NCBI RefSeq assembly: GCF_020035535.1
Contig: NZ_CP083350.1
Span: forward strand, 2,676,501 to 2,740,500
DNA from: Ensifer adhaerens
GTDB lineage: Bacteria > Pseudomonadota > Alphaproteobacteria > Rhizobiales > Rhizobiaceae
Reading direction: 5' to 3'
DNA: 64,000 bases
Under the pieces are notes generated by a model that was given only the letters and a program-made list of their open reading frames with translations, was not told the DNA's origin and ran no database searches. Each line of letters opens with the position of its first letter. The first letter of the stretch is position 1. Below, piece after piece: positions 32,661 through 47,695 of the stretch. The translations under genes and the position numbers were made by a program.

Positions 32661-32955
32661 AGGCGCTGACCGTTCCGTCGCCAAGGTCGCGCGGCGGTCG
32701 TCTCAACCAAAATCGAAGCATGCACGAAGGCCACGCAACGTGCAGTGGTCTGGACCGCTTTCTTCCTGCCGTAGAGTTGCGGATCGCGCACCCTCTTTAG
32801 TTGTCCGTGAAATGCCTGCTTTCTCGGCATATGCCTTCAGTATGAAAATGAATTTCACAATTTTACAAAATATGCGGATTTGGGTTGACGCCCTGAAAAA
32901 ACTGTCCCAGTCTGCGAAAATAAATTACGCCAAAAGGCAGGGGAACAGGACGAGC
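32661..32955 (+). promoter_or_regulatory. Control region of the sugar catabolic island
   Basis: The 295 bp before the oxidoreductase gene are GC-rich at first and then strongly AT-rich from 32820 to 32945. TGAAAATGAATTTCA at 32843-32857 is an inverted repeat (TGAAA-N5-TTTCA), a near match to a motif in the other control region of the island. TTGACG at about 32884 could be a -35 box with no good -10. CAGGGGAACAGGAC precedes the start codon. Confidence 0.5.
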
Positions 32956-34113
32956 ATGAAAGTCGGTATCATCGGACTCGGATTCCGTTTGGGTTATCTC
33001 GGCTATGTCTTCAAGGCCATGGACGAGAGCTTCGAGATCGCCGGCTATGTCGATCCGAACCCGGCCGGTCTGCCCACGCTCACCGAAAAGGGCATCTCGC
33101 CCGGCAACGCCTATGCGACCCCCGAAGAGCTGATCGCCAACGAGAAGCTCGATCTCCTGATGATCGGCTCGCCGAACCATATGCATCTTGACCATATTCG
33201 TATCGGTCTCGAGGCTGGTCTCAAGGTTTTCAGCGAAAAACCGATCGTGACGACGGTGCAGGAGAGCCTGGAGCTTGCAGCACTGATGGCGAAGTTCGGT
33301 CATGAGCGTCTGATGGTCGGCCTCGTGCTGCGCTACGCGCCGATGTATCGCGATCTGCGCGCAGCGCTTGCCGAAGGCAAGCTCGGGCAGGTGGTCTCAA
33401 TCGAGGCTTCCGAGCACATCGAACCCTATCATGGCGCCTTCTTCATGCGCGATTGGCGCCGTTATGAGCGTTATTCCGGCAGCTTCATGCTGGAAAAATG
33501 CTGCCACGACCTGGACCTCTACAACGGCGTCGTCGGCGCCCGGCCGGAGCGCGTCGCAAGCTTTGGCGGCCGCAAGAGCTTCATCCCCGCCAACGATCCG
33601 GCGCGCGAAGGCATCAACGATCTGGAGTTGTTCCACCGCAAGCCGAGCGGTTGGATGGGCTCTGACAAGGTCTTCGACAGCGACGGCGACATCATCGACT
33701 ACCAGGTGGCGATCGTTGAATACGCCAACGGCGTCGGGATGAACTTCCACACCAATCTCAACGTGCCGGACCAGTTTCGCCGCTTCTGCATCATGGGATC
33801 GCGCGGCATGGCCGAGGGCGATTTCATACGCGGCTATTTCGACGTGCACGAGATGCTGACCGGCAAGAAGGTCATCGAGAACAAGTACGCCGCCACGGAA
33901 CTGTCGCAACACTACGGCGCCGACGAACAGATGGCGACCGACATCATCGGCCACGTCCGTGACGGCCGGCCGCTACCGGTCTCGACGCTGGATGCGCTTG
34001 AAGCGGGCATCCTTGCCCTTTCGATGGACGAGGCGCGGCGCAAGAAGAGCGTGATAGATCTGCGGCCCATCTGGGACCGTTTCGACGAAGCTCTGCATTC
34101 CCGCGCAGCATAA
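32956..34113 (+). CDS. Gfo/Idh/MocA family sugar oxidoreductase
   Basis: A 385-aa NAD(P)-dependent oxidoreductase. The N-terminal Rossmann motif is GIIGLGFRLGYLG, the family signature EKPIVTT (catalytic Lys in SEKPI, about 97) is present, and the C-terminal domain has the HDLD motif in KCCHDLDLYNG. It differs from classic Gfo proteins in having Leu-Gly rather than Gly-x-Gly-x-x-G at the first loop (GLGFRLG). It probably oxidises a sugar or inositol-like compound imported by the following ABC transporter. It heads the operon behind an AT-rich promoter region. Confidence 0.9.
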   Translation: MKVGIIGLGFRLGYLGYVFKAMDESFEIAGYVDPNPAGLPTLTEKGISPGNAYATPEELIANEKLDLLMIGSPNHMHLDHIRIGLEAGLKVFSEKPIVTTVQESLELAALMAKFGHERLMVGLVLRYAPMYRDLRAALAEGKLGQVVSIEASEHIEPYHGAFFMRDWRRYERYSGSFMLEKCCHDLDLYNGVVGARPERVASFGGRKSFIPANDPAREGINDLELFHRKPSGWMGSDKVFDSDGDIIDYQVAIVEYANGVGMNFHTNLNVPDQFRRFCIMGSRGMAEGDFIRGYFDVHEMLTGKKVIENKYAATELSQHYGADEQMATDIIGHVRDGRPLPVSTLDALEAGILALSMDEARRKKSVIDLRPIWDRFDEALHSRAA

Positions 34114-34125
34114 GGGAGGCGCGGG

Positions 34126-35010
34126 ATGAGTGTTCAACGCAGCACGGTCATCTTCGCCTGGATCCTGCTTCTTCCTGCCGTCCTTTACGTCACGGTGATC
34201 GTCGCCTATCCGCTGGTCGACACCTTCATCCTGTCGTTTACGGACGCGTCGCTGAAGAAGACGACCAACTGGGTCGGCTGGACCAACTACAACAAGATTT
34301 TCAACGAGACCTTCGCCGAAGTCATCTTCCGCACCTTCATCTGGACCTTCTTCTCCGTCTCGATCAAGATGATCATCGGCGTCTTCGGCGCGACGATGCT
34401 GAACGCGGCCGTACCGGGCCGGGCGCTCTTCCGTCTCCTCACCATGCCGCCATGGATCGTGCCGATGGCAATCGGCATCTTCATGTGGGGCTGGATGTAC
34501 AACGGCCAGTTCGGCATGATCTCGGGCGTGCTGCAGAACTGGGGGCTTTCCAACGGGCCGATCGCGTTCCTGGCCCACGGTTCGACCGCCTTCTGGGCAA
34601 CGATCATTACCGATGTGTGGATCGGAGTGCCACTGGTGACGCTCTACATGCTGGCGGCGATGCAGGCGATCCCGCAGGATCTCTATGAAGCCGCCTGGAC
34701 CGATGGGGCAGGGCGTCTCTACCGGTTCCGCCGCATCACCCTACCGCTGCTCGTGCCGTCACTGATCACCATGTCGATGCTGTCGCTGATCGCGACGTTC
34801 AATTCCTTCGACATCATCTGGATCCTCACCCAGGGCGGGCCCAATGGGGAGACGACGACGATGATCATCGACACCTACCGCACTGCCATCGGGTCGAAGA
34901 AATACGGGGAAGGGGCTGCGCGCGCCGTGCTGATCTGCATCTTCCTGTCGATCTTCTGCCTTGCCTATTTCAGGGTCACCAGCCGTCTTGCCGCGGGGGA
35001 ACAGAAATGA
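34126..35010 (+). CDS. Sugar ABC transporter permease (MalF/UgpA type)
   Basis: A 294-aa permease of the CUT1 family with six spans: TVIFAWILLLPAVLYVTVIV as first, and the EAA loop AIPQDLYEAAWTDGAGRLYR (about 185-205) contacting the ATPase. GGGAGGCGCGGG precedes the ATG. The stop overlaps the next permease by 4 bp. Confidence 0.93.
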   Translation: MSVQRSTVIFAWILLLPAVLYVTVIVAYPLVDTFILSFTDASLKKTTNWVGWTNYNKIFNETFAEVIFRTFIWTFFSVSIKMIIGVFGATMLNAAVPGRALFRLLTMPPWIVPMAIGIFMWGWMYNGQFGMISGVLQNWGLSNGPIAFLAHGSTAFWATIITDVWIGVPLVTLYMLAAMQAIPQDLYEAAWTDGAGRLYRFRRITLPLLVPSLITMSMLSLIATFNSFDIIWILTQGGPNGETTTMIIDTYRTAIGSKKYGEGAARAVLICIFLSIFCLAYFRVTSRLAAGEQK

Positions 35011-35864
35011 GCCAGCCTGCCATGATCAACCGCTACCGTTGGTATGAGCTCGTTGGCATCTATGCCGGCATCTTCGTCTTTCTATGCTTCATCCTGGCGC
35101 CTTTCTTCGAGGGCTTCCTGGTGTCGCTGAAGCCGCTCGGTTTGCTTTTCTCCTCGCCCTATCGCTTCTGGCCGGAAAACGGCTCGTTTGCCGCCTACTT
35201 CACCATGTGGGATAGCGTTCCGGGCTTTGCTCGCTACATCTTCAATTCCTTCTTCATCTCGACGATCGTGACAGTGATCGTCCTGTTGCTGGTCATTCCT
35301 GCCTCTTACGCCTTTGCCCGCTTCAGCTTCCGCGGCAGCGGCTTGCTGCTCGGCGCGTTCCTCGCCGTCAACATGTTCTCCGGCGCGGTGCTGCTTATTC
35401 CGTTGTTCCGGCTGATGCGAACGCTCGGCGTGCTCAACACCTATCTCGCGATGATCGTGCCCGGCGTTGCCTTCCTGATCCCGTCGGCAATCTGGCTGCT
35501 GCGCACCTACATGATGCGTATCCCGCGCGAACTGGATGAAGCGGCATTCGTCGACGGCGCCAGCCACTTCTACACACTGCGCCGGGTGATCCTGCCGATC
35601 GCCATGCCCGGGATCACCGTGGTGGCAATCACCACCTTCATCGGCGCCTATGCCCAGCAATTCATCTATGCACTGACCTTCAACTCCAAGACCGAATACA
35701 TGCCGCTGCCCGTGGGGCTGTTTGCCTATTTCGGTCGTCAGGAGGTGGTCTGGAACGAGCTCATGGCGGCCAGCTTCGTCGGCATCGCGCCGGCTGTCGT
35801 CGTGATCTTCCTCCTGCAACGGTATCTCGTCAGCGGCCTGACCGCGGGCGCGGTGAAACAATAA
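35007..35864 (+). CDS. Sugar ABC transporter permease (MalG/UgpE type)
   Basis: A 285-aa permease of the CUT1 family, pairing with the preceding one. Hydrophobic start YAGIFVFLCFILAPFFEGFL and the EAA motif RIPRELDEAAFVDGASHFYT are visible. FNSKTEYMPLPVGLFAYFG near the C-terminus is typical for the MalG branch. Confidence 0.93.
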   Translation: MSQPAMINRYRWYELVGIYAGIFVFLCFILAPFFEGFLVSLKPLGLLFSSPYRFWPENGSFAAYFTMWDSVPGFARYIFNSFFISTIVTVIVLLLVIPASYAFARFSFRGSGLLLGAFLAVNMFSGAVLLIPLFRLMRTLGVLNTYLAMIVPGVAFLIPSAIWLLRTYMMRIPRELDEAAFVDGASHFYTLRRVILPIAMPGITVVAITTFIGAYAQQFIYALTFNSKTEYMPLPVGLFAYFGRQEVVWNELMAASFVGIAPAVVVIFLLQRYLVSGLTAGAVKQ

Positions 35865-35901
35865 GGCTTAAGTCAACCACCAGAGAACGGGAGCATACAA
35901 A

Positions 35902-37131
35902 GTGTCTATCCAATTCAAGACAGGGGTACTCGCCCTGGCGCTGCTCGGTTCGACGGCGCTCGGCGCCGTCACCGCCAAGGCGGCCGACCAGGAGATCAGC
36001 TGGATCTACTGCGGCGACACCATGGATGCGGTTCACGCCAAGTACATCAAGCAGTGGGAAGAGAAGAACCCGGGCTGGAAGGTCACGCCGGAAGTGGTCG
36101 GCTGGGCCCAGTGCCAGGACAAGGCCACCACGCTCGCCGCTGCCGGCACGCCGGTCGCCATGGCCTATGTCGGTTCGCGTACGCTGAAGGAGTTCGCGCA
36201 GAACGACCTCATCGTTCCGGTTCCGATGACGGACGAAGAGAAGAAGACCTACTACCCCAACATCGTCGACACCGTGACCTTCGACGACAACCAGTGGGGT
36301 GTTCCGATCGCGTTCTCGACCAAGGCGCTCTACTGGAACAAGGATCTGTTCAAGCAGGCCGGCCTCGATCCGGAGAAGCCGCCGAAGACCTGGGCTGAAG
36401 AGATCGAATACGCCAAGGCGATCAAGGAAAAGACCGGCATTGCCGGCTACGGTCTTCCGGCCAAGACCTTCGACAACACGATGCACCAGTTCATGCACTG
36501 GGTATACACGAACAACGGCAAGGTGATCGACGGCGACAAGATCGTTATCGATAGCCCGGAAGTGCTTGCCGCACTCCAAGCCTACAAGGACATTACGCCC
36601 TATTCCGTCGAAGGCGCCACCGCTTACGAGCAGAACGAAGTTCGTGCCATCTTCCTCGACGGCAAGGTCGGCATGATCCAGTCGGGCTCCGGTGCCGCTA
36701 CGCGCCTGAAGGACACCAAGGTCAACTGGGGCGTTGCGCCGCTGCCGCTCGGCCCTGAAGCCAAGGGCGAAGGCACGCTGCTCATCACCGACAGCCTGGC
36801 GATCTTCAAGGGTTCGGGCGTCGAGGAGAAGGCGATCGAGTTCGCCAAGTTCATCACCTCGCCCGGTCCGCAGGGCGAATATGAGCTTCAGGGCGGCGCC
36901 GGCCTGACGCCGCTGCGTCCGTCGCCGATGGTCGATGAGTTCGTCAAGAAGGATCCCTACTGGAAGCCGTTCATCGACGGCATCTCCTTTGGTGGTCCGG
37001 AGCCGCTCTTCACCGATTACAAGGGCTTCCAGAACGTCATCATCGAAATGGTCCAGTCGGTCGTGACCGGCAAGGCCGAACCGGCCGACGCCCTCAAGAA
37101 GGCGGCTGCCGACCTCGAAGAGTACAAGTAA
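35902..37131 (+). CDS. Sugar-binding protein (SBP family 1)
   Basis: A 409-aa periplasmic receptor with a signal peptide ending at VTAKA-ADQE (about 27) and SBP_bac_1 features (YIKQWEEKNPGWKVTPEVVG, DNQWGVPIAFSTKALYWNKD, ADAL...). The mature protein has Cys in WIYCGD and WAQCQDK, which could pair. It starts with GTG behind CGGGAG. It serves the two permeases just upstream. The sugar is unknown; cluster content suggests an amino sugar or its oligomer. Confidence 0.92.
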   Translation: MSIQFKTGVLALALLGSTALGAVTAKAADQEISWIYCGDTMDAVHAKYIKQWEEKNPGWKVTPEVVGWAQCQDKATTLAAAGTPVAMAYVGSRTLKEFAQNDLIVPVPMTDEEKKTYYPNIVDTVTFDDNQWGVPIAFSTKALYWNKDLFKQAGLDPEKPPKTWAEEIEYAKAIKEKTGIAGYGLPAKTFDNTMHQFMHWVYTNNGKVIDGDKIVIDSPEVLAALQAYKDITPYSVEGATAYEQNEVRAIFLDGKVGMIQSGSGAATRLKDTKVNWGVAPLPLGPEAKGEGTLLITDSLAIFKGSGVEEKAIEFAKFITSPGPQGEYELQGGAGLTPLRPSPMVDEFVKKDPYWKPFIDGISFGGPEPLFTDYKGFQNVIIEMVQSVVTGKAEPADALKKAAADLEEYK

Positions 37132-37138
37132 GGCCATC

Positions 37139-37180
37139 GGGCCGCGAATCTTTCTGCATATCTGCAGGGGTTCGCGGCCC
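37139..37180 (+). terminator. Nested hairpin between sugar-binding protein and ATPase genes
   Basis: GGGCCGCGAA (37139-37148) and TTCGCGGCCC (37171-37180) form perfect 10-bp arms, with an inner CTGCA/TGCAG stem, followed by TTGCTTCCTT. It sits 8 bp after the binding-protein stop and could stabilise that mRNA or partially terminate. Confidence 0.65.
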
Positions 37181-37235
37181 TTGCTTCCTTCTGCTATAAA
37201 TGAGCCGCTTCTCGCCGGTGGCCGGAGACAGTTTC

Positions 37236-38369
<1,134 letters not shown>

Positions 38370-38403
38370 CGGGCGAGTAAACCAGGGTAGTGGTCGCCGC
38401 CCA

Positions 38404-38666
38404 TTGTCGGCTGGCGGCCGCTCTTTGCCGTGGCGACTGTATGGCGGCATCCTGTTTTCGTCGAAGGACAACTTTTGCGGCGTCTTCTCCGATGTCACCA
38501 TGTGGCACTGGAGTTCAGCCGGGGCGCCGCCTTGCCTGACCCGCATTCCGTTCTGGAGGACACAGGCAAGCGCCGTCGCCATTTCAAGGGCCTGCGCCCG
38601 GCGGACATCGATGCGAAGCACGTCGCGCGGTACATCAAGATGGCCCGCCAGGCGGTAGATGGGTGA
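38404..38666 (+). pseudogene. Frameshifted remnant of a DUF1801-like gene
   Basis: One frame reads LYGGILFSSKDNFCGVFSD up to about 38490, and another frame continues as HVALEFSRGAALPDPHSVLE and GTGKRRRHFKGLRPADIDAK-like sequence (here DTGKRRRHFK) to the stop at 38666. Together they match the C-terminal half of DUF1801 proteins, but no single frame covers both and the N-terminal half is missing. It fills the gap between the sugar ATPase and the minus-strand M81 gene. A sequencing error could mimic the frameshift, though the missing N-terminus argues for decay. Confidence 0.6.
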
Positions 38667-38697
38667 AATTTTGGTCGTGCCCGACCGGAAGCAACCG

Positions 38698-40173
38698 TCA
38701 GGCCGCGCCCTTCGCCGTGCCGTGCGGATTGTCGACCTTCGGCCAGATGTCTTTAGGCGCGCGCTTGTAGTCAGTTCTGGCCGGGTTGTTCGGGTAAGGG
38801 GTGCCCGCCGAGCAGTAGAGGATTTCTGACGCAATCTTCGAGAACGACGCGTAGAAGTGGTTGGTCGACTTGATGACCAGGATCTTCTTTTGGGTCGGGT
38901 CGATGCCCATTACCGAGAAAAGGCTTGGGTCGAAGCTCTGCGCGCGGGTCGAGTTCAAGATAATGTCGATCCCGTCGAAAAGAATGTGAGCGGCGTCGCC
39001 AAACGGGGCGAAACTCTCGCCGAAGCGCATCTCGGCGTCACGTACCAGCTTGACCACCTTGACTGTGCCGTCGACCGGATTGCCGGTTCCGGGCGCCGAC
39101 TTGGCGCCGAAGCGCAAGGGGATCTCCGCGCCTTCGCCGGCTGCCATGCAGATCTGTACCGCCATTGGGTCCCAGATCGTTCCGACTGCGACGTCGGTTG
39201 CGCCACGCGCCAGAAGCTCTTCGAGCAGCACCGTTGCGTCGCCGGCGGTGCCGCCGCCCGGATTGTCCCAGACATCGGCGATTACGACAGGCCCCACAGT
39301 CGCAGCGAGCGCTTCGTCAACGGCCTGCTTTTCGTCGATCTGCGGCATGATGAACGTGCCGCGGTGTGAGAAGAGCTCGAGGCCCAATTCCCGAGCGAGG
39401 CTTGCACCCTTCTCGGGCTTGCCATTGGTGACGGCGAGCAGCTTCGTTCCCATTTCCGGAACGTCGCCGGCCATGAAGCCATGGATGACGGAGAGCGAAA
39501 GCACATCCGCATCTTCCTTCTCGATGCGCATGAGCTTGTCGACGAAGGAGCGCATCGGATCGCGCGAGGTCGGGTAGACATCGATCATGCGGCAGTCGAA
39601 GATCGACATGACGGGTGTGACGCGCCCTTCGAGCGTATCGACGGCGATGCGCCAGAGATCTTCGCCGCGGTCGACGAAGTCGGTATGCGGAAATTCCTTG
39701 AAGTAGACGAAGAAGTTCGACGCGGCAGCGCGCTTGGCGGTCAGGTGGCTGTGAGGGTCGAGTTCGGCGCAGACGAGGATATCGGGGCCGACGATCTCGC
39801 GCACGCGCGTGAGCAGGTCGCCCTCGGGGTCTTCGTAGCCGTCGGCGACCATGGCGCCGTGCAGGCCGAGCACGACGGCATCGACGGGCATGGCAGCGCG
39901 CAGCTGGCCGAGGATTTCGTCGCGCAGGCTCTCATAGGTCTCCCGGTTGACGAGGCCGGCGGGATCCGCCCAGGTGGCGGTTCCTTCGATCAGCTCCCAG
40001 CCCTTCTCAGCGCAGACTTGCCGGCCGACGGTGATCGGTGCCGTACAAAGCGTCGGCGTTTCCGGGTGTTCTCCCGGCGGTGCGTAGAGCGAGGCTTCGA
40101 AGGCCCGGCGGTCGATGCAGATCGGGGAGAAGGTGTTGGTCTCGGTCGCAAGCGCCGCTGTGAAGATCCGCAA
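38698..40173 (-). CDS. M81 family metallopeptidase (MlrC/DUF1485-like), copy A
   Basis: A 491-aa protein of the M81 family, whose known member MlrC (microcystinase C) cleaves a linear peptide product. The N-terminal motif ALATETNTFSP with Glu, the AELDPHSHLT Asp-His pair, and DVWDNPGGGTAGDAT are present. TTG 40173 is chosen: family members begin MRI..., AAAGG lies just before, and the neighbouring NTF2-like gene ends 32 bp upstream. It shares little identity with copy B 4.7 kb downstream beyond these motifs. Likely substrate is a peptide or pseudopeptide linked to the imported sugar compound. Confidence 0.85.
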   Translation of the reverse strand: MRIFTAALATETNTFSPICIDRRAFEASLYAPPGEHPETPTLCTAPITVGRQVCAEKGWELIEGTATWADPAGLVNRETYESLRDEILGQLRAAMPVDAVVLGLHGAMVADGYEDPEGDLLTRVREIVGPDILVCAELDPHSHLTAKRAAASNFFVYFKEFPHTDFVDRGEDLWRIAVDTLEGRVTPVMSIFDCRMIDVYPTSRDPMRSFVDKLMRIEKEDADVLSLSVIHGFMAGDVPEMGTKLLAVTNGKPEKGASLARELGLELFSHRGTFIMPQIDEKQAVDEALAATVGPVVIADVWDNPGGGTAGDATVLLEELLARGATDVAVGTIWDPMAVQICMAAGEGAEIPLRFGAKSAPGTGNPVDGTVKVVKLVRDAEMRFGESFAPFGDAAHILFDGIDIILNSTRAQSFDPSLFSVMGIDPTQKKILVIKSTNHFYASFSKIASEILYCSAGTPYPNNPARTDYKRAPKDIWPKVDNPHGTAKGAA

Positions 40174-40204
40174 TGCCTTTTGCCTTTTTAATGTCGCGTC
40201 GCGC

Positions 40205-40696
40205 TCAAGCCGGACCCATCGGGTTCGGCAGGTAACCGGTGAAGCCGGCAATCTTCCAGCGCCCCTCATGCAGGCGACAGTAATAGACCGTCTGCCATTT
40301 CAGGATGTCCACGCTTCCGTCGGACTTTTTCAAGCTGCCGTCGAACTTCTTGCGTGCCAGTGCCTGGTCGCCGTTGATCTCAATGTCTTCGAGCGTCGTG
40401 GTCGTGAAGATCGCGGCGCGTGGGTCTTCGGCAAAGCTCTGAGCGGCGAAATCCTGCGCCTGGCGCAGCCACTCGTCGCGATAGGCGGCAAGCGACGGGA
40501 AGGTCAGCCGCCAATTGTCGGGATTGGTTTCACGCCGGCCGTCGATGCCGATGAAGCTCTCCTCCACGAAATCGCCTGACACCATCGACCAGTCGGCCGC
40601 CAGAAAAGCGGTGATGTCACGAGAGACCAGCATCTCCCAGATCGAGTGGCGAGCAGCATCGGAGGAGGGGAATGGATTGAGGAAAGGATCCCGCAT
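40205..40696 (-). CDS. NTF2/SnoaL-like fold protein
   Basis: A 163-aa small protein with cone-fold features (SIWEMLVSRDITAFLAADWS, TFPSLAAYRDEWLRQAQDFA, WQTVYYCRLHEGRWKIAGFT near the end). The family contains enzymes, binding proteins and polyketide-cyclase-like proteins and gives no reaction here. The start is ATG 40696 (MRDPFLNPF) rather than ATG 40726, because AGGGCG precedes it. It is probably cotranscribed with copy A of the M81 gene. Confidence 0.68.
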   Translation of the reverse strand: MRDPFLNPFPSSDAARHSIWEMLVSRDITAFLAADWSMVSGDFVEESFIGIDGRRETNPDNWRLTFPSLAAYRDEWLRQAQDFAAQSFAEDPRAAIFTTTTLEDIEINGDQALARKKFDGSLKKSDGSVDILKWQTVYYCRLHEGRWKIAGFTGYLPNPMGPA

Positions 40697-40809
40697 ATTC
40701 GCGCCCTGGATTGAAATTCTTTTCATGAACGGTGTTTTTCGCTGGTCAAATTCAGCTTTCTATGGTCACTTGTCAACGATCAAAGAAAATAATTTGCACG
40801 AAGGCTGAC
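40697..40809. promoter_or_regulatory. Divergent control region of the island's second half
   Basis: This AT-rich gap lies between the NTF2-like gene (minus) and RidA (plus). TGAAATTCTTTTCA at 40712-40725 repeats the TGAAA/TTTCA arrangement seen upstream of the oxidoreductase gene, with a 4-bp instead of a 5-bp centre. TTGACA on the minus strand (40776-40771) is a possible -35 box for the M81/NTF2 transcript. Confidence 0.5.
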
Positions 40810-41199
40810 ATGACCATCAAAAGATATGGTGCGGAACAGGTTGGTGCTGGTGGTAAGCCCTTGCCGTTTGCGCGCGCCGTCGAGGCTGACGGCTGGCTCT
40901 ATGTTTCCGGCCAGGTCGCCATGGAAAATGGCGAGATCATCGAGGGCGGGATCATCCCACAGACCCACAAGACGATCGCCAACGTGCTGGCCATCCTGAC
41001 TGAAGCCGGCTACGGTCCGGAGCATGTGGTTCGTTGTGGCGTCTGGCTCGACGATCCGCGGGATTTCTGGACTTTCAACAAGATCTACCAGGAGTACTTC
41101 GGTGCTCATCCGCCGGCGCGGGCCTGCGTCCAGTCGTCGATGATGGTCGATTGCAAGGTCGAGATCGACTGCGTCGCCTATAAGCCGAAGGAAGGCTGA
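40810..41199 (+). CDS. RidA family protein (enamine/imine deaminase type)
   Basis: A 129-aa trimeric-fold protein of the RidA/YjgF/UK114 family. It has GWLYVSGQVA, the TIANVLAILTEAGYGPEHVV core and the catalytic-site Arg in PARACVQSSMM (about 99-104). The family hydrolyses reactive enamine/imine intermediates, often made by PLP enzymes. AAGG precedes the ATG. It leads the plus-strand set with the RpiR regulator, SDR, GH20 and second M81 gene. It may protect against an intermediate of amino-sugar breakdown. Confidence 0.88.
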   Translation: MTIKRYGAEQVGAGGKPLPFARAVEADGWLYVSGQVAMENGEIIEGGIIPQTHKTIANVLAILTEAGYGPEHVVRCGVWLDDPRDFWTFNKIYQEYFGAHPPARACVQSSMMVDCKVEIDCVAYKPKEG

Positions 41200-41224
41200 T
41201 CAATAAGCAAGGCGTAAGCGGGCG

Positions 41225-42088
41225 ATGGACATCTTCGCGACACTACAGGAAGAAAAAGGGCGGCTCTCCCAATCGGAAAACCGGATTGCCGACATTCTCC
41301 TGAACGATTTCGAATTCGCGGTGAACGCCTCCATCATCGAATTGGCGAGCAAGGCGGATGTCTCGCCGCCAACCGTGACCCGCTTCTGTCGGCGGCTGGG
41401 CTGCGACAGCTTCTCCGATTTCAAGGTGCAGCTCGCACGCACCGCCTATATCGGCATGCGCTATCTGAAGCCGGAGCCGAAGAGCCGCGAGACGGGCGAC
41501 GTTGCTCAGGACATCATCACCAAGTCGCAGAACGCGCTGTTCCTTTTGCATCGTTCGCTTGATCTGGCCGCAATCGAGCAGGCGGTCGAGCGGATCGCGG
41601 CAGCGGAAATGATCTATGCCTTCGGTTCCGGCGGAAATTCCTCGATGATCGCTGCCGAGTTGCAGAACCGGCTCTTTCGCTACGGGCTTCGCATCACGTC
41701 CAGTTCCGATCACAGCATGCAGCTGATGATGACGGCGGCGGCGCGGCCGACCGACGTGGTCATCGGCTCGTCCTTTTCCGGCCGTAATGCCGAGCTCGTG
41801 CGCGCCTTTGCGCTCGCCCGCGAACTGAAGGTGCCGACCATTGCGCTGACGCAGAGCGGCAGTCCGGTCGCGGCCGCCGCCAGCATCACCGTTCCGGTCG
41901 ATTTGCCCGAGGGTAACAACATCTACCGCCCCACCTCCACCCGCATCGCCTATCTGGCGCTGCTCGATATCCTCTCCAGCCTCGTCGCCTATCGGGTGCA
42001 GCCCCGGGCGACGACCACACTTCGGCGCATCAAACAGCAGCTGGTCACGCACCGCGACGGTGACGATCGCCAGCTTCTCGGAGACTGA
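41225..42088 (+). CDS. RpiR-family regulator (HTH plus SIS domain)
   Basis: A 287-aa regulator with an N-terminal RpiR helix-turn-helix (about 1-77: NASIIELASKADVSPPTVTR, FCRRLGCDSFSDFK) and a SIS sugar-isomerase-like domain (about 125-255: EMIYAFGSGGNSSMIAAELQ, IGSSFSGRNAELV). SIS domains of this class bind phosphosugars such as GlcNAc-6-P or MurNAc-6-P. It sits within the island, 25 bp behind RidA, and likely controls both promoters, which share a TGAAA/TTTCA inverted repeat. Confidence 0.9.
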   Translation: MDIFATLQEEKGRLSQSENRIADILLNDFEFAVNASIIELASKADVSPPTVTRFCRRLGCDSFSDFKVQLARTAYIGMRYLKPEPKSRETGDVAQDIITKSQNALFLLHRSLDLAAIEQAVERIAAAEMIYAFGSGGNSSMIAAELQNRLFRYGLRITSSSDHSMQLMMTAAARPTDVVIGSSFSGRNAELVRAFALARELKVPTIALTQSGSPVAAAASITVPVDLPEGNNIYRPTSTRIAYLALLDILSSLVAYRVQPRATTTLRRIKQQLVTHRDGDDRQLLGD

Positions 42089-42109
42089 CGTGCCGCGAAA
42101 GGTCAGCGC

Positions 42110-42886
42110 ATGACGCAATCCCTAGCGATCGTAACCGGCGCTGCCGGCGATATCGGCCGCGCTATCGCGCGCAAGCTTTCTGACGATCACGATGTGATCC
42201 TGCTCGTCGACATCGATGCGGAGGCGGCCGAACGGGCCGCGCGCGCGCTCGGCGACGAAAACCGTTTTGTGGCGCTCGCCTGCGACGTGACGGATGCTCA
42301 GAGCGTTGCAGCGATGGCGGCGACAGCAAAGGGCAAGGGATCGGTTCGCACGCTCGTCAACAATGCCGGCGCTGCCCGTGCCGTCAGCCTGCATGATACG
42401 ACGCCTGAGATCTGGCGCATGGACAATGCGCTGAACCTCGAAGCAGCCTTCCTCACTTTTCGGGCCGTTGAGGACATGCTGAAAGAGACGCGCGGCTCGG
42501 TGGTCAACATCGCCTCGGTCAACGGCATGAACGTTTTTGGCCACCCGGCCTATAGCGCCGCAAAAGCAGGCCTCCTGCATCTGACGCGGCTCATAGCCGT
42601 GGAATACGGCAAGTTCGGCATTCGCTCGAACGCTGTGGCGCCCGGCACGGTGCGCACCCAGGCCTGGGAGGCGAGGGCGGCATCAAATCCGGATGTCTTC
42701 GAAGAGGCGCGCCGCTGGTATCCGTTGCAGCGTATCGTCAACCCGGACGATGTGGCCAATGCGGTGCATTTCCTGGCGGGGCCTCTGGCTGCGGCTATCT
42801 CGGGCGTCTGCCTGCCTGTCGACTGCGGCCTCACCGCCGGCCAGGCGGAACTCGCCCGTACGTTTTCGCAATCAAGCCACTACTGA
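42110..42886 (+). CDS. Short-chain dehydrogenase/reductase
   Basis: A 258-aa classical SDR. TGAAGDIGRAIARKL (cofactor motif, about 8-22), NNAGAAR, Ser in NIASVNGM and YSAAKAGLLHL catalytic Tyr-Lys are seen. It probably oxidises or reduces a sugar or sugar acid of the island's pathway. GGTCAGCGC precedes ATG 42110. Substrate cannot be told from the sequence. Confidence 0.9.
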   Translation: MTQSLAIVTGAAGDIGRAIARKLSDDHDVILLVDIDAEAAERAARALGDENRFVALACDVTDAQSVAAMAATAKGKGSVRTLVNNAGAARAVSLHDTTPEIWRMDNALNLEAAFLTFRAVEDMLKETRGSVVNIASVNGMNVFGHPAYSAAKAGLLHLTRLIAVEYGKFGIRSNAVAPGTVRTQAWEARAASNPDVFEEARRWYPLQRIVNPDDVANAVHFLAGPLAAAISGVCLPVDCGLTAGQAELARTFSQSSHY

Positions 42887-42904
42887 CCTAAAGCATTCTG
42901 GAGG

Positions 42905-44830
42905 ATGAGCATGCACCCGGTTTCCTACCGTCTCGAGGCGTCCTGGCAGCCGGATGGCGGGCCGTTTGGCCGGTTCACCTTCACACTGTTCAATTTCTCC
43001 GGTGCGCCTCTTTCCGGCTTCAGGATCGTCTATACCTCGCTCACGCGGGTGATCGATCCCAAGGCCTGCGACAATGCCGTGTTCCTGCGCCGCAACGCCA
43101 ATTTTCACGAATTCGCGCCGCCGGCCGGGCTGACGATCGAGAACGGTGAAAGCTGGACCTTCACCGTCAGCGGCCTGCATCGCAATGCACGTCATTGCAC
43201 GGACGGCGCCAAGTCCGCCTATCTGACGCTCGCTGACGGCCGCCATGTGCCGGTCGCCGTCTCCGATCTCCTTCTTGAGAACGCCGTCAGCGAACCGGCG
43301 CCGGTGCAGCTTCCGGAAGGCAGGCTCGACCAGCCCTATGCGCTGCAGCCATGGCCGGCGAAGCTCGAGCTTCGTGCGGGCTCAGGTTTCCCGGTCACTC
43401 TCTATCCGGCGGCCGGTGCCAAGCAGGACGACGTTGCAGCCGTCGACACGGTCCTGTCGATGTTCCGCCGCCTGTTCCCTGCGGCGCATGCGCCATTCAG
43501 CCTTGCCGGCTCGAGGCAGGGCCGGCCGGTGGCATTCACGGCGGATGCGGCTCTGGCGGCAGAAGCCTATCGCCTGGATTTCTCAGAGACCGAAATTCGC
43601 CTCAGCTACGGCGGCAGCGCCGGCCGGCAATACGGCCTGACGAGCCTCGCGCAGTTGCTGGACGGCGCGCGCAACCACCCCGGAAAATTCCGCTTCCCGT
43701 CGACTGGCACGATCTCGGATGCGCCGCGTTATGGTTGGCGTGGCTGCCATCTCGATGTGTCCCGCCAGTTCTACCCGGCGGCCGACGTCGCACGGCTGAT
43801 CGACATTCTCGCCTGGTTCAAGCTCAACGTCTTCCACTGGCATCTGACGGACGATGAAGCGTGGCGTCTGGAGATAAAGGCCTATCCGGAGCTGACGACG
43901 CACGGGGTCCTGCGCGGTCCGGATGAGCCGCTTTTGCCGCAGCTCGGCAATGGTGCCGAGCCCGTCGGCGGGTTTTACAGCCAGGCGGATGTGAAGGCGA
44001 TCGTCGCGCAGGCAACGGTGCTTCATGTCGATGTGGTGCCCGAAATCGATATCCCTGGCCACAGCACGGCGACCCTGGTGGCGTTGCCGCATCTGACCGA
44101 CGGTCAGGAAGCACCGGAAAGCTATCATTCGGTTCAGGGCTATCCGAACAACGCGCTCAACCCGGCCGTTGCCTTCACCTACGAGTTCCTGGAGAAGGTT
44201 CTCGACGAGATGGTCGAGCTTTTCCCAAGCTCATATATCCATATCGGCGGCGACGAGGTGGCGAACGGCTCCTGGCTCGCATCGCCGCTGGCCAAGAAGC
44301 TGATGGAGCAGGAGGGCATTTCCGGTACCTTCGCGCTGCAATCCTATTTCCTGAAGCGGGTGAAGCAGATGCTGACGGCGCGTGGCCGCAAGCTCGCCGG
44401 CTGGAACGAGGTGGCCCATGGCGGCGGTGTCTCGACCGAGGATACGCTGCTGATGGCCTGGGAGCGGCCGGAGGTCGGGATCGAGCTCGCCCGCGAAGGC
44501 TACGACGTGGTGATGACCCCCGGACAGGCTTACTACCTCGACATGGCGCAGGCCGATGCCTGGCAGGAGCCGGGCGCAAGCTGGGCCGGTACCGCAACGC
44601 CTGCCCACACCTATGGTTATGAGGCCGAAGGCGAATTTCCCGAGGAGCTGAAACCGCGCCTCAGGGGTGTTCAGGCCTGCATCTGGAGCGAACATTTCCT
44701 GTCGCGCGGCTACTTCAATCGCCTGGTTTTTCCGCGCCTTCCGGCGATCGCCGAGGCGGCCTGGACACCGAAGGCGGCGAAGGACTGGCAGCGTTTCGCG
44801 GCCATTGCGCCGCTCAGCCCCAATCTCTGA
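42905..44830 (+). CDS. Beta-N-acetylhexosaminidase, glycoside hydrolase family 20
   Basis: A 641-aa exo-glycosidase that removes terminal GlcNAc or GalNAc. The N-terminal beta-sandwich (about 5-125, YRLEASWQPDGGPFGRFTFT) resembles carbohydrate-binding domains of chitobiases, then a GH20b domain (about 150-260), then the GH20 TIM barrel from about 280. Catalytic Asp-Glu is in YIHIGGDEVANGSW (about 445-458), and HWHLTDDEAWRLE marks the barrel start. No signal peptide is seen, so it is probably cytoplasmic and acts on an imported oligosaccharide or conjugate. AGGATGAG lies near the start. Confidence 0.93.
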   Translation: MSMHPVSYRLEASWQPDGGPFGRFTFTLFNFSGAPLSGFRIVYTSLTRVIDPKACDNAVFLRRNANFHEFAPPAGLTIENGESWTFTVSGLHRNARHCTDGAKSAYLTLADGRHVPVAVSDLLLENAVSEPAPVQLPEGRLDQPYALQPWPAKLELRAGSGFPVTLYPAAGAKQDDVAAVDTVLSMFRRLFPAAHAPFSLAGSRQGRPVAFTADAALAAEAYRLDFSETEIRLSYGGSAGRQYGLTSLAQLLDGARNHPGKFRFPSTGTISDAPRYGWRGCHLDVSRQFYPAADVARLIDILAWFKLNVFHWHLTDDEAWRLEIKAYPELTTHGVLRGPDEPLLPQLGNGAEPVGGFYSQADVKAIVAQATVLHVDVVPEIDIPGHSTATLVALPHLTDGQEAPESYHSVQGYPNNALNPAVAFTYEFLEKVLDEMVELFPSSYIHIGGDEVANGSWLASPLAKKLMEQEGISGTFALQSYFLKRVKQMLTARGRKLAGWNEVAHGGGVSTEDTLLMAWERPEVGIELAREGYDVVMTPGQAYYLDMAQADAWQEPGASWAGTATPAHTYGYEAEGEFPEELKPRLRGVQACIWSEHFLSRGYFNRLVFPRLPAIAEAAWTPKAAKDWQRFAAIAPLSPNL

Positions 44831-44841
44831 GAGGAAAAGCC

Positions 44842-46284
44842 ATGCGCATCGCCGTTGGTGGCATCCACACCGAGTGCAGCACCTATTCGCCGGTCCTGAT
44901 GACGGAAGAAGATTTTCTTGTGCTGCGCGGGCAAGCGTTGCTGGAAGCAGAGTATTTCAGCTTCATGAAGGTTGAGGGCGTCGAGCACATGCCGCTGCTG
45001 CATGCGCGGGCCGTGCCCGGTGGGCCCGTGTCGCGCCCGACATACGAGGCGTTCAAGGTGGAGTTCCTTGAGAAGCTAAGCGCCACCTTGCCGATCGATG
45101 GCCTCTATCTCGCCATGCATGGCGCCATCAAGGTCGACGGCATGGATGATGCCGAAGGCGACTGGATTTCGGCGGCGCGTGCTGTCGTCGGTCCGGATTG
45201 CCCGATTGCGGCGAGCTACGACCTGCACGGCAATGTCAGCCAGAGGATTATCGATCAGCTCGATATCTTTGCCGCCTATCGCACCGCGCCGCATATCGAC
45301 ACGCCGGAAACCATGACTCGCGCCTGGTCGATGCTTGTCTCGGCATTGAGAAGCGGATCCCGTCCGGGTATTGCCTGGGTTCCGGTTCCCGTGCTTTTGC
45401 CCGGGGAATGCACCTCGACGGAGGACGAGCCGGCGAAGTCGCTTTATGCGCAACTGCCTGACATGGACCAACGTCCCGGCGTTCTCGACGCCAATCTGAT
45501 GGTCGGTTACGTCTGGGCCGACGAGCCGCGGGCGACCGCCTGCGCGGTCGTCACCGCGACCGATAGGACAGCAGCCAAGCAGGCGGCGGAAGAGATTGCC
45601 GCCGGCTACTGGGCGCAGCGGAGAAACTTTCGCTTCGGCCCGGTGACTGGGCCGCTCGACGAAATGCTCGATATCGCCGAACGGGCGACGACGACCCCGA
45701 TCATCCTTGCCGACTCGGGCGACAACCCGACGGGCGGTGGCGTCGGCGACCGTGCCGATGTGCTGAAAGCTCTGCTGGCGCGCAGTTGGCGCGGCGCCCT
45801 GATTGCCGGCATCACCGACCGGCCCGCGGTCGAAGCCTGCTTTGCCGCGGGTGTCGGTGAAACGCTGATGCTGAAGATCGGCGGCAGCCTCGACCCGGCA
45901 AGCCCATGCGCCGAGATGCTGGTCGAGGTCGTCAGGCTCGACGATCCGGGTGCTGAGCGGGAGCGGCAGGCGGTGGTGCGCGTCGGCGCCATCGAAATCG
46001 TCATTGCCGCGCGCCGCAGACCCTATCACGATATCGAGGATTTCCGGCGCCTGGGGCTCGATCCACAGGCGGTGCGGCTGCTCGTCGTCAAGTCGGGTTA
46101 CCTGTCGCCGGAACTTGCGCCAATCGCCAACCCCAATCTGATGGCTTTGACCGAAGGTGTCGTCAACCAGGGCATCTCCGGCCTTGCGAGCCTGCGCCGT
46201 CAGCGGCCGGCTTACCCGTTCGATCAGGATTTTGGGTTTGAGCCTGTCGCCCGCTTCTCGTCCCGCTGGTCGAGCGACGGCTGA
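44842..46284 (+). CDS. M81 family metallopeptidase (MlrC/DUF1485-like), copy B
   Basis: A 480-aa M81 protein starting MRIAVGGIHTECSTYSP, with the family Glu in the same place as copy A (HTECSTYSP against ATETNTFSP). YDLHGNVS supplies the Asp-His pair and LADSGDNPTGGGVGD the third motif. It follows the GH20 gene by 11 bp in the same operon, so its substrate is likely the aglycone or peptide left after hexosaminidase action. Having two distinct M81 genes on opposite strands of one island is unusual. Confidence 0.87.
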   Translation: MRIAVGGIHTECSTYSPVLMTEEDFLVLRGQALLEAEYFSFMKVEGVEHMPLLHARAVPGGPVSRPTYEAFKVEFLEKLSATLPIDGLYLAMHGAIKVDGMDDAEGDWISAARAVVGPDCPIAASYDLHGNVSQRIIDQLDIFAAYRTAPHIDTPETMTRAWSMLVSALRSGSRPGIAWVPVPVLLPGECTSTEDEPAKSLYAQLPDMDQRPGVLDANLMVGYVWADEPRATACAVVTATDRTAAKQAAEEIAAGYWAQRRNFRFGPVTGPLDEMLDIAERATTTPIILADSGDNPTGGGVGDRADVLKALLARSWRGALIAGITDRPAVEACFAAGVGETLMLKIGGSLDPASPCAEMLVEVVRLDDPGAERERQAVVRVGAIEIVIAARRRPYHDIEDFRRLGLDPQAVRLLVVKSGYLSPELAPIANPNLMALTEGVVNQGISGLASLRRQRPAYPFDQDFGFEPVARFSSRWSSDG

Positions 46285-46401
46285 GGCTTCACTATCCGCA
46301 TTTGCCTGTCCGAGTTTTCGGGTAGGCCCTCCCTTGGCAGCGCCCCGGTCTATCGGGCCGGTAAACAACGCTGTGACGCCTTCACCTGCTGCATATTCTG
46401 T

Positions 46402-46425
46402 CCTTAAATCGACCGTGATTTAAGG
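46402..46425. repeat. Dispersed inverted repeat (CCTTAAATC type), copy 1
   Basis: CCTTAAATC (46402-46410) and GATTTAAGG (46417-46425) are perfect 9-bp arms around GACCGT. The 17-bp string TGTCCTTAAATCGACCG (46399-46415 region) recurs near 63306. Such a motif in two intergenic spots suggests a dispersed repeat or shared regulatory site. Confidence 0.55.
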
Positions 46426-46468
46426 GATTGTGCGATATCCTCCACCCGCTTCGCGGACACGTTCTAGC

Positions 46469-47695
46469 ATGACTTCCACCATTTTCAGCGCCATGCGCAA
46501 CCCGGCCATGCGGATCAGCATGCTGGCGATCTTCCTGTTTGGCTTTGCGGGTGCCGCGACGTCGCCCTACCAGTCCGTCGTCGGCATCAACGAGCTGGGC
46601 CTGAGCGACGCTCTCTATTCGCTGCTGATCCTTCTCGCCTCGACGGTCAATGTTATCGTCAGCGTTTCGATCGGCATCCTGGCCGATCGTGTCGGCAACT
46701 ACCGGGTGCTGATGTCGACTGCGATCCTGTTCGGCGTCGTTGGCTACGGTATCGTCTATCTGTTGCCGCATCAGATGAGTTTTGTCGTCAGCGTCTTGTT
46801 GCTGTTGCCGATCTACGGTGCGGTTTACACGCTGCTCTTTGCCAATGTCCGCAGCATTGCGCGCCGGATGAGCGGCCATGACGCCGCGTCGCTGACGACA
46901 GGGGCGCGTGCCGCCATCTCGCTCGCCTGGGTTCTCGTGCCTGGACTGGTCGGCTTTGCCCTGGCGGGCGGGGAGAGTATGCTGCCCGCCTATCTGCTTG
47001 CCTGCGTGGGCTGCACCGTCAATCTGCTGATCGTATTCTTTTCGCTGCCCAACGAAGGCGGCGTTGATCCGTCGCTTGGCAAGCGGCTTTCCTATTGGAC
47101 GTCGTTCCGCCAGATCCTGGCACCGCGTATCTTCCTGCGGGTGATTGCCGTTGCGACGATCACGTCGACGCTGCACGTCAACTCCGCCGTGTTGCCGCTG
47201 ATCATGACCGATGAGATCGGCGGAAACGTCACCGATATCGGCATTATCGTCGGCATCGTCGCGTTCCTGGAGGTTGTTTTCATTTTCGTCTGGGCGCGCA
47301 TCCAGTTGAGCCTCGTGCCGTACAAGGCGCTGGCGTTGGGCACGGCCATCTATATCGGCTACATGGTCCTTCTCAGCTTTTCCACGGCCACCTGGCAGAT
47401 CTACGCGCTAACCCTGATCAGCGCCTTTGGCGCAGCAGCGCTGATCACCATTCCGATCAGCTATTTGCAAGACCTGATCGCCGACCGTCCGGGACTGGGA
47501 AGTTCACTGATCGCGGTGAACCTGTTCCTCAGCGGCGGGCTTTGCGCGGGGCTTTTCGCGCTGGGTACGCGGATCAGTAACTATTCCGGCACGGCGCTGC
47601 TCGGCGGTGCTGGGGGGCTTGTCGGGTTGGTGCTGCTGTTGGCCCTCGACGGCGACAGAAAGGGGAAGAGGACGGTCAGCCGCGAACCGGGTTAG
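46469..47695 (+). CDS. MFS sugar efflux transporter (SetA-like)
   Basis: A 408-aa transporter with about 12 spans, starting ISMLAIFLFGFAGAATSPYQ, with SIGILADRVGNYR after TM2 and LGLSDALYSLLILLASTVNV, in the pattern of Set-type sugar exporters. A gap of 184 bp with an inverted repeat separates it from copy B of M81. ATG 46469 (MTSTIFSAM) is preferred to the in-frame GTG at 46430. It may relieve sugar stress when the island's intermediates accumulate. It ends tail to tail with the next minus-strand gene, overlapping 4 bp. Confidence 0.82.
   Translation: MTSTIFSAMRNPAMRISMLAIFLFGFAGAATSPYQSVVGINELGLSDALYSLLILLASTVNVIVSVSIGILADRVGNYRVLMSTAILFGVVGYGIVYLLPHQMSFVVSVLLLLPIYGAVYTLLFANVRSIARRMSGHDAASLTTGARAAISLAWVLVPGLVGFALAGGESMLPAYLLACVGCTVNLLIVFFSLPNEGGVDPSLGKRLSYWTSFRQILAPRIFLRVIAVATITSTLHVNSAVLPLIMTDEIGGNVTDIGIIVGIVAFLEVVFIFVWARIQLSLVPYKALALGTAIYIGYMVLLSFSTATWQIYALTLISAFGAAALITIPISYLQDLIADRPGLGSSLIAVNLFLSGGLCAGLFALGTRISNYSGTALLGGAGGLVGLVLLLALDGDRKGKRTVSREPG

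What the first reader, a model, noticed from the sequence alone, without database searches (positions are those of the whole stretch)
32956..47695. Sugar island joining a GH20 hexosaminidase, two M81 peptidases and a CUT1 transporter
Importer, oxidoreductase, SDR, RidA, RpiR regulator, GH20, NTF2-like protein, two M81 proteins and a Set-type exporter form one neighbourhood. M81 is known from MlrC, a peptidase of microcystin breakdown; GH20 takes off terminal N-acetylhexosamine. The combination suggests breakdown of a glycosylated peptide-like or amino-sugar compound (such as a muropeptide or GlcNAc-bearing natural product). I know of no described pathway with this set.
Basis: partly seen in the sequence, partly recalled or inferred. 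Interest (0 to 1): 0.7.

Follow-up and report, generated by a model that had tools for sequence, protein, structure and literature searches.

The report
Rhizobial amino-sugar regulon with MlrC-like enzymes
A conserved set of about a dozen genes in rhizobia appears to import and dismantle a GlcNAc-type sugar through a sugar-acid route, with enzymes related to a toxin-degrading peptidase probably removing the N-acetyl group.

Summary
In detail: Gfo/Idh/MocA with a CUT1 importer, M81a with a small conserved protein, and RidA-RpiR-SDR-GH20-M81b-MFS are all present. They form one unit. Order is largely kept across Rhizobiaceae, a genome of another family carries nearly the same set shuffled, and a motif (GAAAA-N1-2-AATT) sits as a pair at exactly two places in the window: before gfo and in the divergent M81a/RidA promoter. 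In 14 of 14 further genomes the pair stands before gfo; in six of these the two halves are on different contigs or about 100 kb apart.

The peptide reading gives way to a better one. In 38 of 80 named loci M81a adjoins a fold-III PLP enzyme of the OngC kind; a minimal version elsewhere has a KdgK-like kinase, RpiR, RidA, TRAP importer, M81a and PLP enzyme. This mirrors the ong pathway for oxidised GlcNAc, with M81a where ong has a D-aminoacylase. Best model: glycoside import, cytoplasmic GH20, C1-oxidised GlcNAc, de-N-acetylation by M81a, deamination to KDG. The regulon is well supported; substrate and M81 chemistry are inferred. In this Ensifer-like genome the PLP enzyme is not in the cluster.

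The parts
32843..32857 (+). operator-like site 1 before gfo (TGAAAATGAATTTCA)
   Evidence: paired sites kept in 11 of 11 same-genus loci with gfo inside the stretch and 14 of 14 further genomes
32915..32929 (+). operator-like site 2 before gfo, 72 bp after site 1, with a TTGACG hexamer between them
   Evidence: hexamer by inspection, the promoter scan found none
32956..34113 (+). gfo: Gfo/Idh/MocA oxidoreductase
   Evidence: PF01408/PF22725; orthologues 69-88% in 14 of 14 genomes asked
34126..35010 (+). CUT1 permease A
   Evidence: PF00528
35007..35864 (+). CUT1 permease B
   Evidence: PF00528
35902..37131 (+). periplasmic sugar-binding protein, family 1
   Evidence: PF01547/PF13416; best solved chain is maltose-binding protein MalE3
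37200..38369 (+). MsmK/UgpC-type ABC ATPase
   Evidence: PRK11650 468 bits, above its cut-off of 432
38698..40173 (-). M81a: MlrC-like zinc amidase (start codon uncertain); proposed N-deacylase
   Evidence: PF07364/PF07171; 348 bits to 7ylq; Zn ligands kept, E70 not
40208..40696 (-). conserved small protein (reader: NTF2-like; fold unproven)
   Evidence: no Pfam match; 50 invariant columns among 11 sequences
40715..40724 (-). operator-like site 3, before the small-protein/M81a operon
40785..40794 (+). operator-like site 4, before ridA
   Evidence: both sites in 15 of 15 same-genus loci; of 73 named loci with ridA, 73 have at least one and 68 both
40810..41199 (+). RidA-family enamine/imine deaminase
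   Evidence: PF01042; to RidAs near OngC-like enzymes outside the family-level cluster: L144 42%, L145 44%, L166 52%, L152 53%, L165 58%, L174 60%
41225..42088 (+). RpiR/MurR-family regulator (HTH_6 + SIS); likely reader of the operator-like pairs (inferred)
   Evidence: PF01418, PF01380
42110..42886 (+). SDR dehydrogenase; proposed C1 oxidation of GlcNAc (inferred)
   Evidence: PF13561; PRK07074 442 bits, above its cut-off of 361
42905..44830 (+). GH20 beta-N-acetylhexosaminidase, no signal peptide seen by inspection
   Evidence: PF00728 359 bits; 376 bits to beta-N-acetylglucosaminidase Nag2, 6ezr
44842..46284 (+). M81b: second, more diverged M81 zinc amidase; substrate unknown
   Evidence: PF07364/PF07171; conserved columns
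46430..47695 (+). MFS transporter
   Evidence: PF07690

Best explanation
The neighbourhood is one regulon for a GlcNAc-type glycoside, handled by an oxidative, ong-like route. Shown by sequence: a CUT1 importer and oxidoreductase, a leaderless GH20, RidA, RpiR, SDR, two M81 enzymes, and one operator-like pair at both promoters. Inferred: the importer brings in a GlcNAc disaccharide (chitobiose or its C1-oxidised form, chitobionate); GH20 splits it in the cytoplasm; GlcNAc is oxidised at C1 by the SDR or the Gfo enzyme (or arrives oxidised) to N-acetylglucosaminate, which is formally an N-acetyl-D-amino acid; M81a removes the acetyl group in the place of OngB; a fold-III PLP enzyme (OngC type) with RidA turns glucosaminate into KDG and ammonia; KDG kinase feeds central metabolism. 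In the window's lineage the PLP and kinase steps must come from elsewhere in the genome. M81b may act on a lactone or a second N-acyl substrate; that is open.
For: Shared operator-like pairs: 4 matches in 64 kb (0.36 expected), all at the two promoters; 15 of 15 same-genus loci at ridA, 11 of 11 at gfo, none elsewhere in 295 kb; nine elsewhere in 1.65 Mb of named loci; 14 of 14 further genomes before gfo. PLP enzyme (PF01168+PF14031 in the two scanned) directly beside M81a in 38 of 80 named loci and near M81a in L041, L042, L144, L145, L152, L164. Minimal form in two genomes of one genus of another family: KDG-kinase-like gene, RpiR, RidA, TRAP importer, M81a, PLP enzyme, small protein. A third genome of that genus has an amino-acid-type ABC importer (SBP family 3), PLP enzyme, KDG-kinase-like gene and RidA but no M81a or M81b homologue in the 20-kb locus, as expected if the un-acetylated amino acid is imported. 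ong has GH20, essential RidA, RpiR repressor, fold-III PLP OngC making KDG, and OngB deacetylase (PMC9537276). An OngB-like amidohydrolase from L166 has no match at E<=1e-30 in 9 of 9 M81a-bearing genomes asked. Control: of 12 other M81 loci one has a PLP-enzyme hit (31%) and one a RidA (32%), none RpiR or the small protein.
Against: The PLP enzyme is absent from the window and beside M81a in 0 of 23 Ensifer/Sinorhizobium-titled loci; the nearest in G000 (50-51%, C2:2475253) sits in another CUT1 cluster without the motif. No LPMO_10 in G000. No M81 is known to me to deacetylate a sugar acid. One related cluster has GH1 and no GH20 (L144), so the glycone is not always GlcNAc. Six of eight g271 genomes keep M81a with CUT1, SDR and RpiR but show no RidA or PLP enzyme beside it (L151 ends 1.3 kb after RpiR starts), though all eight have a PLP homologue somewhere. 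The KDG-kinase scores are below the curated cut-off (300 and 264 against 400 bits). L042, L144, L145, L152 and L164 lack the motif.
Confidence: 0.5

Rival explanations
1. The aglycone is not a sugar acid but another N-acyl D-hydroxy-amino acid; GH20 or GH1 removes the sugar, M81a opens the amide, and the PLP enzyme cleaves or deaminates the D-amino acid.
For: The PLP family includes D-threonine aldolase and D-threo-3-hydroxyaspartate dehydratase, and OngC itself also deaminates D-Ser and D-Thr; GH1 stands in L144; a third M81 of the genome sits with an oligopeptide ABC importer, an M55 D-aminopeptidase and a DAO-family oxidoreductase.
Against: KDG-kinase-like gene in three loci with this PLP enzyme (L152, L165, L164 by similarity); sugar-type importer; RpiR regulator; shared parts with ong.
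Confidence: 0.2
2. Muropeptide or glycopeptide breakdown: the M81 enzymes are peptidases on a GlcNAc-bearing peptide.
For: M81 family; MlrC acts on linearized microcystin; D-amino-acid-type partners of another M81.
Against: E70, W59 and F67 of MlrC absent; NF041767 scores 365 and 155 against 999; no peptide-type importer and no other peptidase among the scanned cluster genes.
Confidence: 0.12
3. Ordinary chitobiose/GlcNAc uptake cluster with bystander M81, RidA and SDR genes.
For: CUT1 + Gfo + GH20; SBP weakly like NgcE (38 bits, cut-off 400).
Against: No NagA, sugar kinase or sugar isomerase enzyme among the cluster genes; a canonical nagA locus with CUT1-type, Gfo-like, SIS and BadF-type kinase genes lies at C1:3967133; M81a and RidA are among the best conserved genes in L042.
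Confidence: 0.12

Closest known systems
ong pathway for oxidised chitin, Pseudoalteromonas prydzensis (PMC9537276; abstract, sections 8, 13, 17 and passages seen)
   Same: GH20, RidA, RpiR; fold-III PLP enzyme in many rhizobial versions; KdgK-like kinase in the minimal relatives L152/L164
   Different: M81a instead of the D-aminoacylase OngB; CUT1 or TRAP instead of TBDR + SSS; GH20 without a leader; extra Gfo, SDR, M81b, small protein; no LPMO_10 in the genome; PLP enzyme absent from the window's cluster
MlrC microcystinase (7YLQ; PMC9982164, abstract and passages seen)
   Same: M81 family by sequence, four Zn ligands kept in M81a
   Different: general base E70 and residues W59, F67, F96, S392, Q468, S485 differ; 3 of 10 docking-derived binding residues identical (N41, D341, R492; counted by hand, and R492 varies among orthologues)
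Canonical GlcNAc (nagA) locus of the same genome (L139)
   Same: CUT1-type importer with a Gfo-like gene, CutC nearby
   Different: has NagA, SIS and BadF-type kinase genes; no M81, RidA or GH20 found in it

Membership tests
ong oxidative chitin cluster | GH20 hexosaminidase | tested here: met
   but OngA is predicted periplasmic with a signal peptide, this one shows none by inspection
ong oxidative chitin cluster | RidA and MurR/RpiR regulator in the cluster | tested here: met
   ong
ong oxidative chitin cluster | D-aminoacylase OngB | tested here: not met
   none among the cluster genes; no homologue of the L166 amidohydrolase in G000 at E<=1e-30; that query is OngB-like by family only
ong oxidative chitin cluster | fold-III PLP deaminase OngC in the cluster | tested here: not met
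   absent in the window; beside M81a in 38 of 80 named relatives
ong oxidative chitin cluster | KDG kinase in the cluster | tested here: not met
   absent in the window; a homologue in 8 of 8 genomes asked, G000 included, elsewhere than the cluster except in G327
ong oxidative chitin cluster | LPMO in the genome | tested here: not met
   0 matches of PF03067 in G000; other LPMO families not sought
ong oxidative chitin cluster | GlcNAc1A is the growth substrate | not testable with these tools
   needs growth and enzyme assays
MlrC microcystinase | NCBIfam NF041767 cut-off of 999 bits | tested here: not met
   365 (M81a) and 155 bits (M81b)
MlrC microcystinase | Zn ligands E39, D167, H169, H191 | tested here: met
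   E15, D143, H145, H167 of M81a, invariant in 24 of 24 aligned M81
MlrC microcystinase | catalytic base E70 | tested here: not met
   L46 in M81a; none of the 24 aligned sequences has E there, one has a gap
Canonical NagA/NagB GlcNAc pathway | nagA and kinase/isomerase in the cluster | tested here: not met
   the only nagA over the cut-off is at C1:3967133

The most novel reading that the evidence does not exclude
The M81a clade is a new family of sugar-acid de-N-acetylases: an MlrC-like zinc amidase took the OngB role, giving alphaproteobacteria, rhizobia above all, their own oxidative route for GlcNAc that needs no sugar phosphorylation before KDG, wired into one RpiR regulon.
Probability: 0.45. 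Interest if true: 0.78.

Novelty: new variant of a known kind. Interest (0 to 1): 0.62.

Why it matters
M81 is a large family (101 of 289 sampled genomes of the class have a match at E<=1e-20) whose well-studied member known to me is MlrC. A concrete, cheap test (M81a on N-acetylglucosaminate) could give the family a broader function and show that nitrogen-fixing and plant-associated rhizobia have an oxidative chitin/GlcNAc route; the published survey found the complete route in Gammaproteobacteria and one betaproteobacterium (PMC9537276, section 17).

Tried and rejected
Muropeptide/peptide breakdown: rejected as first choice for the residues and partners given above. Canonical GlcNAc operon: rejected, it lies elsewhere (L139). 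CutC as core partner: near the cluster in only 25 of 80. hut genes as part of the unit: hutU in 23 of 80 only. PLP-enzyme tree of 36 rows: the linked enzymes fall in several places but the base is unresolved, so independent recruitment is not claimed. A genome-wide search for the direct operator pair gave two hits, this gfo promoter and one without a full second site, and the reversed control gave one; no new regulon member. TGGTCTGGACCG before gfo was looked for in the nagA locus and not found. Papers: searches were seen as listings (titles and abstract starts, capped at 15-30 rows; one search had 612 papers and listed 20); none listed describes this cluster or an M81 sugar-acid deacetylase. 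In PMC12017989 (passages) M81, DUF1485, MlrC and rhizobi- do not occur. S. meliloti locus tags next to hutU appear only in an sRNA table (PMC2780559, one passage). PMC5343134 was seen in passages. The motif was read off an alignment that included the window, L025-L042 and eleven other loci, so its count there is post hoc; the 14 genomes were not in it. Those 14 were my choice: 13 of the 23 named loci without an importer ATPase in the locus, plus L069, which has one.
Full report
What is there. The window lies in an 8.1-Mb genome whose closest named relatives by M81b are Ensifer. Layout: gfo-permA-permB-SBP-MsmK on plus (32956-38369); M81a and a small protein on minus (38698-40696); RidA-RpiR-SDR-GH20-M81b-MFS on plus (40810-47695). 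Upstream lies an OsmF-type betaine importer, downstream hutU and hutG.

Is it one unit? The GH20 is found at 83-100% identity in 16 of 16 genus members (G000 included) and at 70-73% in two other genera of the family; 19 of 61 genomes had any match. In the neighbourhoods of 15 genus members and 80 named Rhizobiaceae loci the order is kept apart from losses. Ten of the 80 are the same genomes as ten of the 15 (equal contig lengths). The named loci are the best 80 of 381 and were cut 10 kb from M81b, so gfo lies outside most of them; counts of 80: SDR 80, GH20 79, RpiR 78, small protein 76, M81a 75, RidA 73, MFS 71, MsmK 62, SBP 48. With an MsmK of at least 60% identity required, 57 of 80 keep the importer in the locus; of the 23 without, some are short contigs. 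L042, from another family of the order, holds nearly the same set in a different order (RidA 80%, permease B 78%, M81a 76%, SBP 69%, gfo 68%, M81b 57%); its GH20 is closer to the second GH20 of the window's genome (59%) than to the cluster's (41%), and its MFS gene does not match the window's.

Operator evidence. Aligning upstream regions showed strongly kept AT-rich sites before gfo and between the small protein and ridA. The pattern GAAAA-N1-2-AATT occurs four times in the 64-kb window, 0.36 expected, at exactly those two places. All 15 genus loci have both sites at ridA; 11 of 11 with gfo inside the stretch have both there; none elsewhere in 295 kb; of 73 named loci with ridA, 73 have at least one and 68 both, with nine sites elsewhere in 1.65 Mb. 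L040, L041 and L179, from other genera, have two and two. Because the motif came from an alignment holding some of these, the cleaner test is a set of 14 genomes that I chose: 13 of the 23 without an importer ATPase in the fetched locus, and L069, which has one. All 14 encode gfo (69-88%) and all 14 have the pair 72-73 bp apart before it. From, five of them (G711, G712, G719, G720, G724) have the halves on different contigs, which for G711 may only be an assembly break, and one (G723) about 100 kb apart on one contig. Clusters with a more distant RpiR (L042, L144, L145, L152, L164) lack the motif, as do the nagA, second-GH20 and PLP loci L139, L043, L140. That the cluster's RpiR binds it is inferred.

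What it does. The lead came from neighbours in relatives. In 40 of 89 loci examined and 38 of 80 named ones a PLP enzyme adjoins M81a; two of these enzymes, from L060 and L042, were scanned and have Ala_racemase_N and D-ser_dehydrat domains. This is the family of D-threonine aldolase and D-threo-3-hydroxyaspartate dehydratase; OngC, the glucosaminate deaminase of the ong cluster, is a fold-III PLP enzyme distantly related to these (PMC9537276). That cluster has GH20 OngA, RidA OngD (essential), RpiR OngR (repressor), OngB (GlcNAc1A deacetylase), OngC and KdgK. The rhizobial set shares this frame, with M81a in the deacetylase place. GlcNAc1A is formally an N-acetyl-D-amino acid, and OngB is closest to D-aminoacylases; MlrC breaks an amide to the nitrogen of D-Glu (recalled), so the chemistry is close.

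Comparative series. L152 and L164 (two genomes of one genus, another family): KDG-kinase-like gene (L152: 300 bits, cut-off 400), RpiR, RidA, TRAP importer, M81a at 56-57%, PLP enzyme, small protein; no GH20, SDR or CUT1 homologue was found in the locus. L165 (third genome of that genus): amino-acid-type ABC importer (SBP family 3), PLP enzyme, KDG-kinase-like gene (264 bits), RidA; no M81a or M81b homologue in the 20 kb. Window type: sugar importer, GH20, SDR and M81a. The enzyme set grows with what the importer would bring in: amino acid, N-acetyl acid, glycoside. This is an argument, not a proof; importer specificity is inferred from class. L166, from another class, has RpiR, an Amidohydro_3 enzyme, RidA and an SSS symporter in a row and a PLP enzyme close by, like ong.

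Controls and contrary results. Twelve other M81 loci (under 46% identity) show RidA once (32%), a PLP enzyme once (31%), and no RpiR or small protein within 9.5 kb at the thresholds; the 13 M81a-clade loci outside the genus and named sets show RpiR 13, SDR 11, RidA 7, PLP enzyme 6, small protein 5. In eight genomes of genus g271, M81a (55-57%) sits with a different CUT1 set, SDR and RpiR; only two also show RidA and the PLP enzyme, and one of these carries GH1; all eight have a PLP homologue somewhere. None of 23 Ensifer/Sinorhizobium-titled loci has the PLP enzyme beside M81a, against 38 of 57 others. The window's genome has three PLP homologues elsewhere (50%, 39%, 32%); the best is in a CUT1-PfkB-SIS cluster (L140). 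So for this genome the last steps are assumed from elsewhere. No LPMO_10 was found, so oxidised chitin would have to be made by others, or GlcNAc oxidised inside the cell by the SDR or Gfo enzyme. L121 keeps M81a but RidA and RpiR were not found, and L122 keeps RpiR, SDR, GH20 and M81b but not M81a or RidA.

M81 residues. MlrC's zinc ligands (E39, D167, H169, H191) are kept in M81a and in all 24 aligned M81 proteins; E70, proposed general base in MlrC, is leucine in M81a and glutamate in none of the 24 (one gap); W59 and F67 are alanine and threonine in the 13 aligned M81a-clade proteins. By hand, three of ten docking-derived MlrC binding residues are identical (N41, D341, R492, the last not kept among orthologues). 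Neither M81 reaches the microcystinase model.

Verdict. A real, conserved and probably co-regulated amino-sugar system; the ong-like sugar-acid reading is best, with M81a as deacetylase the new element. Substrate, M81b, the small protein, the MFS and the missing deaminase in Ensifer stay open.

Noticed in passing
window 38420-38660: Between MsmK and M81a lies what looks by eye like a decayed small gene (resembling DUF1801 from memory; no profile was run).
   Followed up: no
window 32746-32757: TGGTCTGGACCG, kept in the genus alignment before gfo, resembles the DasR/NagR-type GlcNAc operator (recalled) or a terminator stem; another exact hit at 16326.
   Followed up: partly
L143 (G000:C2:2907500-2927400): A third M81 of the genome (42% to M81a) sits with an oligopeptide-type ABC importer, an M55 D-aminopeptidase and a DAO-family oxidoreductase, which suggests D-amino-acid amides for M81 more widely.
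   Followed up: partly
L043 (G000:C2:2281000-2300500): Second GH20 of the genome (45%) near an SBP_bac_5 importer protein, aldehyde dehydrogenase, LysR and MFS genes.
   Followed up: no
L121: In Rhizobium sp. FKY42 the cluster looks decayed: RidA and RpiR not found, SDR and GH20 shortened, M81a, M81b and PLP enzyme full length.
   Followed up: no
L140 (G000:C2:2466000-2485900): Another unassigned sugar cluster: CUT1-type importer, SIS, PfkB kinase and an OngC-family PLP enzyme, with a ROK-family gene.
   Followed up: partly
L098 12692-13465 and 25 of 80 named loci: A CutC gene lies near the cluster in many Rhizobium/Agrobacterium versions; CutC also lies by nagA in L139.
   Followed up: no
window 37164-37184: Terminator-like stem-loop between the SBP and MsmK genes, as often seen after binding-protein genes (recalled).
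   Followed up: no
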